Below are positions 976 through 59,860 of a stretch of DNA of 64,000 nucleotides, piece after piece. Each line of letters starts with the position of its first letter. Position 1 is the first letter of the stretch. Under the pieces are notes generated by a model, which worked only from the letters and a program-made list of their open reading frames with translations, was not told the origin of the DNA and did not search any database. This DNA comes from Pezizomycotina sp. ARF18. Taxonomy: Eukaryota; Ascomycota. The stretch lies in assembly GCA_002224055.1 (NCBI GenBank), contig AZLU01000168.1, positions 1-64,000 on the forward strand, in the 5' to 3' direction. Both the position numbers and the translations under genes were made by a program.

Positions 976-2083
976 TTATTCGACGCCGCTGAAGAATATC
1001 CGGCCGATAGCAGCATAAAAGACGACAACGCAGGTGATGACGAGGACCTTGTTCCGAGCGAACCAGCTAGATTCCCCTTTTACCGATGGGATTGCAGCGG
1101 CAGTGGCCGCTACGGTCCTTGCGTCACTTTCTTTATGCTACTATTGCTTCCTTCGCCGCTGGGATCCGACCGCGGCATGATCTTCCGGTCTTCGGGTTAA
1201 TGTTGTTCTGCTGCATCCACAGCCAGTTCTCCTTGTCCAGCTCCGGCCAATCCGTTCTGAACCTCTGCCCGCGTCGCCGGAACCATCAGGCCGTTACCGC
1301 CGTTCGTGGCGCCGCCGCCCGTCGAATTCCACCAGCGGGACATGAACGCCAGCTGCTTCCTTTGCGCCTCCGTCGCGGCGACGGAGCCCGTCGTCATTTC
1401 CTCCGAAGTCATAAAGGACAGCAGGCCGATAAGAATGGTCGATACCTCCACGTCGGGTTGAAGGATTTCGGGTGGAAGTCGGAGAGGAGAGGCAGAGGCG
1501 CGTCGAGCACTGGAACCGGCCGGACGGTGTCATCATCCGGATCGCGGGCGGCTTGAAGGGGTAGTCGGGTGGGAAAACGAGCTGGCCCAGTACTGTCCTC
1601 CGTGGTAGGGGTATTAGGCGGGCCGTTATTACGTAGACCCATCTGCGCAAGATCGAGGTTAGCTTCTAGTCGATCGCTGTTTTTTTTTTGTTTTTTTTAT
1701 GTAGATATAAAACCAAACACAGGACAAAGCAGAACAAAATTCTGCTAGGTTCCTTGTGAAACAACATAGGGCTCGCAATGTGGCGTCGTGGCGGTTGGTC
1801 CCGCCGAGCTTTTCTAGATTTTGCCGGAAACAATAAAATTTGGTCCTTACTCTAATATGTTGCTCTCCGTCGGGTGAGCTATGATATACGGTGGCGGGGA
1901 TTCCTGGATGTTTTTGTATTCTCTCGTGAGCTAGAAAATAAGGGGCAAGGAAAAAAAAAAAAAAAAAGGTGTATCAGAGTCAGTAAGCAAGTCATGCGAT
2001 CACGAACATAGGAGAGAAACAAAGATTTTAAGCAGGAGTGTTGAAGTGAACATTACCCTTTTATAGGCTGTACGAGTAGCCAT
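976..2083 (-). CDS. UBC6: UBC6/UBE2J-type ER tail-anchored ubiquitin-conjugating enzyme E2
   Basis: This gene encodes an E2 that accepts ubiquitin from E1 on a catalytic cysteine and serves ER-associated degradation from the cytosolic face of the ER. Three exons fit: 2083-2057 (MATRTAYKR), 1930-1851 and 1642-976, joined by introns with GTAATG and GTAAGG donors; the second has a CTAAC branch point. Exon 2 ends in HPTESNIL and joins to EWVYVIT. Exon 3 carries QLVFPPDYPFKPPAIRMMTP and SGRFQ..TRLCLS, whose Cys (codon 1494-1492) is the active site. As in the family, there is no HPN motif. Further on come EVSTILIGLLSFMTSEE and a C-terminal hydrophobic anchor (WFARNKVLVITCVVVFYAAI) just before the stop. 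Exon 3 slips frame about five times, each explained by one base missing in a G, C or T/C run (for example near 1610-1625 and 1488). I read these as sequence errors because the protein is otherwise fully conserved. Confidence 0.9.
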
Positions 2084-3409
2084 GATTCCAGCGATTCTAG
2101 GGGTGTAGTTCTCGATAGGATTGGAGGCGGTTGATGGATGGATTTGCGATACGAAATCTGAAGGGGAGGATTTCTTGTTGTGGTTGTTGTTGGTCGGAGA
2201 TGGGTGGGAAAAAAAAATGACGGAGTTTTCGTTGAAAAAGGAGAGGCGGGGGAAGAGAGAGAAGGGGAAAATGCACCGTAATGGAGTGGATAAACGGGCA
2301 GTAAGAAGTAAAGACCGGAGTAAAGAGTGCTTATATAGGATTCCTTTTAGCTAAGTAGCGTTGCTGAGAGATAGAAAGACAAGAAAAGGAAAGGAGAATA
2401 AAAAAAAAAGAAAAAAAAAAAGTAGCAATAATATAATAATAATAATATAATAATAATAATAATAAATAAATAATAAATAATAAATAATATTAATAAACGA
2501 GGTTGAGTCCAGAACCTTCTTTCTATTGAAAGAAAAAAAAGTTCTCTCCTCCGCAATTTATTTAGTAATGCTACTGCTGTGTATAAATGCTGTATCAAGT
2601 GCTAGACTGCTAGTGTATTCTGGCTTTACCTCTCTTCCTCGGCTTACCGAGAAAAAAAAAAAGAAAGAAAAAGAAAAAAAGTGGACAAAGCAAAACACCT
2701 CCACAGGAGACAAATAATGTGTACGCTTAACTAGCTTCTGACCTATTTAGCTGTAGTGGTTAGCCACTTGCACCACTGCGGTGCCAGATCATGATGCAGG
2801 ACACTTGCATTGCTTCATTGGTCGATAGTATTGTATTCAGTGAGAAGAAACTACCTATACGTACTATATAGAGGGATTTCTCGAGATCAAAATGTTTCGA
2901 AATTTCCTGTATCTATATTTCTCTTCTGATCATATGAAAATAAACCTTTGAGAATCAAATCGGTAGATTTTGCTACGGCTTATCTACTGTAAATATTCAG
3001 TATCGCATTCGCTGGAGTACGTAGGTATACGGTAAATCCGTATTCAATCATATAATGTCGCATGTATACAAGGGCTTCCTACCGGTTGCAATTGGGTGTT
3101 GAAATTCGTGCCAATGCATGGTAGCTATGGCCAGCGATATGCTTGTACGTGCTACTTTCTCCGAATCTCCGAGGATTGTTATTATTCATATCAGTAGTAT
3201 TGAATTCGGTGTTTTCCTATCATAGTGGCATGTATTGCCTAGTATATGTTTCGGGTAATAACGTTATCGTGAGCGGGCCTAGCTTAAATGCCCACTGCTC
3301 TGTGTCCAAATAACTCCGTATCACGCATGACTTTTTGGTTGGATATATATCTAAATATACTGATAGGCAAAAGGTTGCCTTATTGTCGCATCATAATCTT
3401 GAGTGTAGA

Positions 3410-3440
<31 letters not shown>

Positions 3441-57169: not shown

Positions 57170-57593
57170 TTACAATCTTGACTTGCCCTCTGAGACTGTG
57201 ATCTCGCTCACGAGTGCCTCCCAACCAGTCGCCAGCGCCATCGTCGTAACCATCGGGTTTACCCGGACGCCGTCGGGAACAGAGACGCATCAGCGACGTA
57301 GACGCCCCGCTTACCGTAAGCTTGCCTTTATCGTCTACGACGCCGAGCTTCGAGGTACCCATGCGAGCCGTGCCCATCTGATGTGCTGTACCGAAGGTAT
57401 TCGGGTTGGGCAGGCCGTTGTACTCTACCTCCTTGATAACTTCTTGAACGCGGTGCTATCGGCCTCCTTTGTAGCATTTTCTTGCTTGACGTAGGTCGGA
57501 GCTCCTAATATGGGTAGATTGATTTCGGTTGCACCAGCTGTCGGGTACAGTTATGCCGTTAGCCCTATCCCAATATCACAATTTGAAAGGAAC

Positions 57594-57630
<37 letters not shown>

Positions 57631-59860
57631 CTTGACGCACACCGCATGCAACATCTTGCAAGCCCCAACGAGAGTCTCTAGCATACTCTTGCGGTCCTGA
57701 GCGGAAGGGACGTAATCGATGTGGTAGTCACCCTTGGAGTCAATCCATATTCGCCCGGACCCTTGGTCGCGGTTGACGAGCACGTGGCCGGCCATTTGGT
57801 TGAAGGTAAGGAGCTTCCGCTTGTAGTCGAGGGCTCCACCCCACTGCATCGCGGTCATGCCGATGCCCGGCAACATCAGCATGCCCTCGATCCTCGTGCC
57901 GTATCCGTTGCCCGTGTTGCCGTCGAAGTCAGTGTTAACCGCGGTGAGGATGCCACCCTCCCAAGGACGCTGCTCCTTGGCCAGACCGAGTTCATGCACA
58001 TGGCTGGATGGAGGTGCAGATTTCTTCTAGATTGTAGTTCTATATACAAACGTTAGGCCATAAATGCTTATAAGGGTGAAGAAAAAGGAATACGTATCTT
58101 ACCTTAACGCCACTTCTCAACAGAAGAGCTGGGGTATTAAGAGTTCCTGAAGCTACGACAACCTTGGAAGCCTTGATGACAACGTGCACACCTCTTTCGA
58201 ATCCTGCCCTTCCTCCACCTGCCCTTGACGCCGTAAGCCTGTCCATTTTTATCAAACAGTACTTTGTCCGCCTCGAAACCTTGAATGAACTTTGCGCCGC
58301 GGTCCCTAGCATCAAGTAAGAACGTGCGGGCGGTGCCTTGCTTGCCGCCTCCTCCAGGGAGATCAGAGTGGCCGTTCCCCTACAGCCGATGGTACAGTAG
58401 TGTCCGCAAACCTTGGCATGTTCTCGGGATCGATAATGTTCTGGGGGACGGCTTGGACACTTTGCCCGAGCAGATGGCTCCCCCTGAGCGTGGCGTAATT
58501 CGAGACATTGTGATCTTTCTCCAGGAAATTGACCACGGACATTTTCTCGCAGACGTAATCCATGCATTCCTGGAACTCGCTCGTCTGAACGAAGTCGAGG
58601 CCGTATTTCTCCGCCCATTCCTGGCGTACGGATGCGGGAGCTGCCAGGAAACGCTCCAGTTGATGGTACTACCACCTCCCCATGCACTGTATTCACACGA
58701 TAGCCATTAGCCATCTCCTAGGGGCTTTTTGGGGGAAAAAATTGATTTGAAAATTTACCTCCGGCTAAGACGGTAAAATTACCGTCTTCTGTTTGCGCCA
58801 GCGCTTTCTTCTCAAACAGGCGCTGTAACCCTTCTCGCTCTGTTCGTGGCAATTCGTGCGGTTCGAACCAGTATCCCTTGTCGACCACCATGACCTGGTG
58901 GTGGGGCAGGTCCGATGCGAGACGAGACGCAATGACACCGCCGCCGGAACCAGATCCGACGACCAAGATGGAAGTCGTCAGTTCAATTGGTTCAGCTTCG
59001 CGCGAACCTTAGAGCTCTTCGAGCTTAAGGCTTCGATGTCTTCGAACTTGAAGGTTGGTTCGGCGGACGCCTTTTCAGCGGAAGCCTTCAAGGCCGCATC
59101 CGCCTCATCGAGAACGGATACCCCGGAAACTGCATGGCCTTGTGCGCGATAGGGCTGGCGCGCTGGTAGCCGAATTTCCTAATGTCTACTCGTGCACAGA
59201 GTGTTAATATATTCCAACGGCATATATCTCTTCATAGAAAGGAAAATAATTTGAAAAATAAAAAGGGTAGTTTCGAAGGCACTAGATTTCTGGGAGACAC
59301 TAACAGCAAAAGTCTTGTTATTTTCTTAAAAGTGCCTGTCCGGGCTGTAGCCCACCCTCTGAGGATAACCTCGACATCCTTGCGCGGAAGCTGAGCGATG
59401 GGTGTTGAGTAGCCAGTGAAAAGTAGGGCGCCAATCCGCGTACTAAATACAAATATTAAAATGTCAACCATGTGAATATGTTTTATACGAGGACTTCCAA
59501 TTGTAAAAATAATATCAAAGAAATCCACTGAAGGTTTGCAATTTGGTTGAAAGAAACGCACTTGAGAATATCGAGTAGAGTCTTAAGCTCTTTTATCTTC
59601 TCTCGGGGATATCATTATTGAAAATATTTGGACGTCCTCGACGAATTCCTTGCAATCGCTGGCGGCCTCCTTTGCGAAGGCTTCAATGACGGCGTCATCT
59701 ACGCTTTTTACGGCGAAGGCCTTGTATGCCCTTTTCAACTCCAGCGTCTCTTCTGGAGTAAGGGGGCTGATGATGGCATCAAAATATGGAAAAGTGTGTT
59801 CCACTGAGCGTCAGAGAATACACTATCCTGCGGCCGCTCGTATACTCTGATGTTCGCCAT
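57170..59860 (-). CDS. Long-chain fatty alcohol oxidase (FAO type, GMC oxidoreductase)
   Basis: FAO enzymes oxidise long-chain or omega-hydroxy alcohols to aldehydes with FAD, making H2O2, usually on peroxisomal or ER membranes. ATG 59860 opens MANIRVYERPQDSVFSDAQW, then DAIISPLTPEETLELKRAYK. After an intron (donor GTGCGT near 59562, acceptor TTAG near 59443) comes RIGALLFTGYSTPIAQLPRK. The FAD Rossmann motif is SILVVGSGSGGGVIASRLAS, followed by VMVVDKGYWFEPHELPRTER. After another intron, AWGGGSTINWSVSWQLP is the GMC signature, then EFQECMDYVCEKM. Later come KASKVVVASGTLNTPALLLR, GMLMLPGIGMTAMQWGGALD, QMGTARMGTSKLGVVDDKGK and GVYVADASLFPTASG. The end, NPMVTTMALATGWEALVSEI, stops at 57170. One intron contains a 32-nt A tract on the plus strand (57597-57628). 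At least six one-base slips, such as GGGG read as GGG near 57260, interrupt it. Confidence 0.9.

What the first reader, a model, noticed from the sequence alone, without database searches (positions are those of the whole stretch)
976..59860. Window-wide one-base frame slips in conserved genes point to homopolymer length errors
Seen directly: in UBC6-like, TRF4-like, RRM-like, APH-like, HSPA12-like, glyoxalase-like, GH15, MFS and FAO genes, the conserved protein text hops between frames. At most hops the family reading is restored by adding one base to a short G, C, T or A run (for example near 1488, 7765, 16507, 21533 and 57260). Known: UBC6 and TRF4 are single-copy housekeeping genes, so simultaneous decay is improbable. 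Inference: the assembly carries systematic homopolymer contractions, and automatic gene calls here would be fragmented or mis-spliced.
Basis: partly seen in the sequence, partly recalled or inferred. Interest (0 to 1): 0.75.

Follow-up and report, generated by a model that had tools for sequence, protein, structure and literature searches.

The report
Assembly drops bases from short runs
The broken-looking genes in this fungal sequence are most likely not decayed: the assembly has lost single letters from short runs of identical bases, an ordinary sequencing error that would spoil automatic gene calls.

Summary
In the window, GH15 and a GMC (fatty alcohol oxidase-like) gene score in three frames each, and UBC6 and TRF4 need frame slips. 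The fault is not confined to the window. HSP90 has 11 missing and no extra bases in 1,738 nt; RPB2 has 18 missing and 1 extra in about 2,470 nt. Neither has an in-frame stop, and both are 74-78% identical to yeast proteins. Frame changes with no room for an intron occur in 9 of 12 chaperonin, HSP90 and polymerase loci, though CCT3 has only one slip in 367 aligned codons. The same fault shows without any protein. Eight near-identical 5S rRNA genes differ from intact types by 2 substitutions but 10 single-base indels, 9 of them losses, all in runs. A contig that repeats itself differs by 0 substitutions and 18 indels over 18,089 columns. A 220-bp tandem duplicate in the window differs by 3 run-length changes only. 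The runs are short (2-7 bases), while A/T runs of 32-35 survive. Pseudogenisation, programmed frameshifting and RNA editing are disfavoured. It is a known kind of artefact.

The parts
1457..1644 (-). UBC6-like ubiquitin-conjugating enzyme, three frame slips
   Evidence: Frame-aware alignment to PDB Ubc6 (9en5), score 196 against at most 45 for 30 shuffled references; single-frame PDB match E 6.7e-14; Pfam in single frames only E 0.066
4629..4901 (-). TRF4-like poly(A) polymerase, block with two slips
   Evidence: Alignment to PDB 3nyb block; PAP_assoc E 2.2e-8
5217..5405 (-). TRF4-like poly(A) polymerase, block without slips
   Evidence: Alignment to PDB 3nyb block; MTPAP-like_central E 5.9e-13
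29299..29739 (.). Tandem duplicate of about 220 bp, copies 29299-29517 and 29518-29739, differing by three run-length changes and no substitution
39472..40006 (+). Glyoxalase_3 domain in two frames; an intron between them is possible
49641..51124 (+). GH15 domain spread over three frames
57318..58644 (-). GMC oxidoreductase (FAO-like): N-terminal domain in three frames, C-terminal match weak (E 0.0005)

Best explanation
The assembled sequence, not the organism, is at fault. Shown: single bases are missing at about 0.6-0.9% of positions in HSP90, RPB2 and 5S rRNA genes (far fewer in CCT3), losses greatly outnumber gains, and the changes sit in short runs of identical bases. Inferred: the contigs are a long-read consensus that was not fully polished, in which a loss-prone error profile and uneven read depth shorten short runs. 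Dependence on depth is inferred from long open frames surviving on contig C257, from the lower rate at which its two copies disagree, and from 8 of its 18 disagreements lying within about 400 bases of the contig's start. The sequencing platform is unknown.
For: HSP90: 11 losses, 0 gains, 0 stops; RPB2: 12 single and 3 double losses, 1 gain, 0 stops; 26 loss events against 1 gain, p 4e-7. 9 of 12 loci with frame changes that leave no room for an intron. 5S copies: 9 losses, 1 gain, 2 substitutions in 8 copies, all ten indels in runs of 2-4. C257 copies: 0 substitutions, 18 indels in 18,089 columns, 16 of them single bases, all in runs of 3-7, where 18-22% of bases lie in runs of 3 or more. By contrast two diverged mitochondrial copies differ by 34 mismatches and 3 gaps in 656 columns. 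Run model favoured about 400 to 1 over random deletion in HSP90 and RPB2.
Against: Density is uneven: CCT3 has one slip in 367 aligned codons; no hop was seen at C70 or C236; 5,997 columns of C257 show no difference. At 4 of 23 slips a base unlike its neighbours fits better. Long A/T runs are not truncated away, unlike the usual picture of nanopore errors (recalled). L080 and L082 share one 5S loss, which may be inherited. No reads were available.
Confidence: 0.96

Rival explanations
1. Genuine mass pseudogenisation: the genes have really decayed in this genome.
For: Frames are broken in many genes.
Against: HSP90 and RPB2 are essential (general knowledge), show no in-frame stop in the aligned path and keep 74-78% identity. 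Real decay should also bring stops, gains and longer indels. Two copies of one C257 stretch differ by indels only.
Confidence: 0.01
2. Mostly assembly errors, but a minority of the window's breaks are real, such as decayed members of the APH, MFS or HSP70-like families.
For: Five of 15 5S matches are truly diverged copies with 6-24 substitutions, so real pseudogene copies exist. APH, MFS and the HSP70-like gene were seen in one frame only.
Against: Nothing in the window was shown to be decayed beyond frame slips and one stop in the UBC6 path.
Confidence: 0.1
3. Programmed ribosomal frameshifting restores the proteins.
For: Slips in essential genes with conserved protein sequence on both sides.
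Against: The same losses occur in untranslated 5S rRNA genes; 11 slips in one gene would be needed. A slippery-site motif was not tested for.
Confidence: 0.003
4. RNA editing inserts the missing bases, as known from Physarum mitochondria (recalled).
For: Losses only, at a rate of one per 110-160 nt in HSP90, RPB2 and 5S genes.
Against: 5S copies with and without the loss stand side by side, and C257's two copies disagree with each other.
Confidence: 0.005

Closest known systems
Homopolymer indel errors in long-read-only fungal assemblies (Drechmeria coniospora, PMC7500977; passages seen)
   Same: Most errors lie in homopolymers and shift reading frames of conserved genes; short-read polishing corrected the run lengths there.
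   Different: There polishing added more insertions than deletions and run length was more often overcalled; here losses dominate.
Gene-fragmenting errors in draft long-read assemblies (PMC12007338; start of abstract in search listing only)
   Same: Frameshifts that make intact genes look like pseudogenes.
   Different: Small genomes with curated references; here a 46 Mb fungal assembly without a named reference.
Systematic nanopore errors that survive polishing (Homopolish, PMC8011154; search listing only)
   Same: Systematic errors that stay in the consensus.
   Different: The platform here is unknown, and A/T runs of 32-35 are kept.

Membership tests
Homopolymer-indel assembly error | Copies of one sequence differ by indels, not substitutions | tested here: met
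   C257: 0 substitutions, 18 indels in 18,089 columns; window duplicate: 0 and 3
Homopolymer-indel assembly error | Indels lie in runs of identical bases | tested here: met
   16 of 16 single-base indels in runs of 3-7 on C257, the other 2 of 18 being AT units; 10 of 10 in the eight close 5S copies
Homopolymer-indel assembly error | Present in coding and non-coding sequence on many contigs | tested here: met
   density uneven, CCT3 low
Homopolymer-indel assembly error | Longest runs hit most | tested here: inconclusive
   Affected runs are 2-7 long; A32 and T35 stand in the window, but their true length is unknown
Homopolymer-indel assembly error | Accurate reads disagree with the assembly | not testable with these tools
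   No reads held
Pseudogenes | Stops, gains and longer indels beside single losses | tested here: not met
   HSP90 and RPB2: 0 stops, 1 gain, 26 loss events; window UBC6 path has one stop
Programmed ribosomal frameshifting | Confined to translated sequence | tested here: not met
   5S rRNA genes affected
Programmed ribosomal frameshifting | Slippery-site motif at each slip | not tested
   No motif search was made
Insertional RNA editing | Bases present in RNA but absent from DNA | not testable with these tools
   No RNA data; intact sister copies of 5S speak against it

The most novel reading that the evidence does not exclude
The DNA really lacks these bases and the fungus restores them at the RNA level across its nuclear genome, 5S rRNA included.
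Probability: 0.005. Interest if true: 0.95.

Novelty: not a real feature. Interest (0 to 1): 0.12.

Why it matters
Protein sets, pseudogene counts, intron counts or selection tests made from this assembly would be unreliable: in HSP90 and RPB2 about one base in 140-160 is missing, and the longest ATG-started open frame in 57 partly overlapping nuclear loci is 378 codons (introns also shorten frames). Frame breaks in this assembly should not be read as biology until it is polished.

Tried and rejected
Haplotype copy of the window: a DNA search with 49-59 kb found only short matches, up to about 56 bases. Rfam and tRNA scans of the window: nothing. Bacterial GH15 relatives as a reference: none confirmed; PDB relatives of one GH15 frame: none. 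SSU rRNA as a yardstick: not completed. A morel identity, suggested by the huge mitochondrial contig, was dropped because five loci on it have 27-29% GC while morel mitogenomes have 38-48% (PMC11881001, passages). The run-length distribution against a geometric expectation did not decide anything. TRF4 and CCT3 gave only partial references. Reversed references score far lower than the true ones, 97 against 1971 and 42 against 3168. Pfam scans of five further stretches (part) gave a TACC domain, a borderline DUF3824 and otherwise only weak matches, apart from the failed RRM checks.

Full report
Setting. The window is contig C168 of an unnamed 46.36 Mb assembly in 408 contigs. A Fungal_TACC domain (E 1.7e-12), a DUF3824 match just below its cut-off and the gene set suggest a filamentous fungus; I did not identify the species. 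There are no Rfam or tRNA hits in the window, and a search with 49-59 kb found no second copy.

The observation. Pfam scans of each frame, stops as X, show GH15 in three frames and GMC_oxred_N in three, and Glyoxalase_3 in two, possibly with an intron between. It finds two slips in one block of TRF4 and none in the other. The UBC6 path also crosses one stop. Scores are 135-196 against at most 45 for 30 shuffled references each. APH, MFS and the HSP70-like gene scored in one frame only, and no RRM was found in the two stretches tried.

It is not local. HSP90 on C137 and RPB2 on C82 were aligned to yeast Hsc82 and fission yeast Rpb2, built from printed PDB alignments. HSP90: 11 missing bases, none extra, no stop, 567 codons at 74% identity. 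RPB2: 12 single and 3 double losses, one gain, no stop, 811 codons at 78% identity, one intron. Over frame penalties of -10, -14, -20 and -26, RPB2 gives the same events each time; HSP90 gives 13, 11 and 11 single losses, then 7 single and 2 double. CCT3 is a counter-example in density: one loss over three blocks with 48, 272 and 47 aligned codons, the middle block with 48 inserted codons that are probably an unmodelled intron. From the fragment tables, 9 of 12 loci have at least one frame change with no room for an intron, 17 in all. The three without are C70, C236 and, because its profile match is a single stretch, RPB2 on C82 itself.

It is not a matter of translation. Fifteen 5S rRNA matches were found, fetched and aligned. 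Eight copies lie within two substitutions of an intact type (references L072 and L076; the last alignment column was left out). Two of the eight show no difference. Together the eight show 2 substitutions, 9 lost single bases and 1 gained, every indel in a run of 2-4. L080 and L082 share one loss, which may be inherited. Five further copies (L081, L083-L086) carry 6-24 substitutions and were left out of the count; not all their indels lie in runs.

It can be seen directly. Contig C257 (56.5 kb) repeats itself at an offset of 37.3 kb. Over 18,089 aligned columns the two copies show no substitution and 18 indels: 16 single bases, all in runs of 3-7, and two AT units; one pair of pieces, 5,997 columns, shows none. 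Only 18-22% of bases there lie in runs of 3 or more, so 16 of 16 has a chance of about 3e-11. Eight of the 18 fall within about 400 bases of the contig's start. Inside the window, 29299-29739 is a tandem duplicate with no substitution and three run-length changes; three events alone are not significant (0.11), but the pattern agrees. As a contrast, two diverged mitochondrial copies differ by 34 mismatches and 3 gaps in 656 columns.

Runs or any base? For 23 single-loss slips in HSP90 and RPB2, lengthening a run explains the protein better in 8, ties in 11 and does worse in 4. Random deletions in the same genes give 13.5%, 36.5% and 50% (n = 600); the 263 of these that fell in runs give 30%, 46% and 24%. 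The ratio favours runs about 400 to 1. The best-fitting runs are 2-5 long. Yet A/T runs of 32 and 35 stand in the window, so this is loss in short runs, not plain truncation of long ones.

Rates. About 0.6% of bases are missing in HSP90 and 0.7% in RPB2, about 0.9% in the eight 5S copies (9 over 8 x 119 nt), and about 0.1% in the CCT3 blocks (1 over 367 codons). On C257 the two copies together differ at 0.1%, and open frames of 594-865 codons survive there, against a longest ATG-started frame of 378 codons in 57 partly overlapping nuclear loci. Introns and the shorter loci also lower that last number. Higher depth on a multi-copy element is the likely reason; that is inference.

Verdict. It is a known kind of artefact: passages of PMC7500977 describe nanopore assemblies of a fungus in which most errors lay in homopolymers and short reads were needed to correct them. 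Papers on this topic were searched. No paper on this particular assembly was looked for, because the species is unknown.

Noticed in passing
Contig C257 (L025, L066, L068-L071, L087, L088): A contig of 56.5 kb that repeats at 37.3 kb, as if a circular or tandem element had been assembled 1.5 times. Its frames match a family B DNA polymerase (E 9.3e-33), PIF1 helicase (1.9e-45), Rpb1-type (4.7e-14) and Rpb2-type (3.6e-17) RNA polymerase domains, GIY-YIG (1.9e-10) and a borderline F-box.
   Followed up: partly
Contig C50 (L061-L065): cox1 matches are spread over 136,069-206,518 on a 231 kb contig, with a second copy of the first part at 91,811, at 27-29% GC in five loci: a very large, intron-rich mitochondrial genome.
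   Followed up: partly
window 29299-29739: A 220-bp tandem duplicate without substitutions may itself be a false duplication made by the assembler.
   Followed up: partly
window 32621-32759 and 38979-39082: Long A-rich and short-unit repeat tracts; A runs reach 32 and T runs 35 somewhere in the window.
   Followed up: no
5S loci L081, L083-L086: Diverged 5S copies beside intact ones; L086 matches well for about 94 bases and then departs.
   Followed up: no
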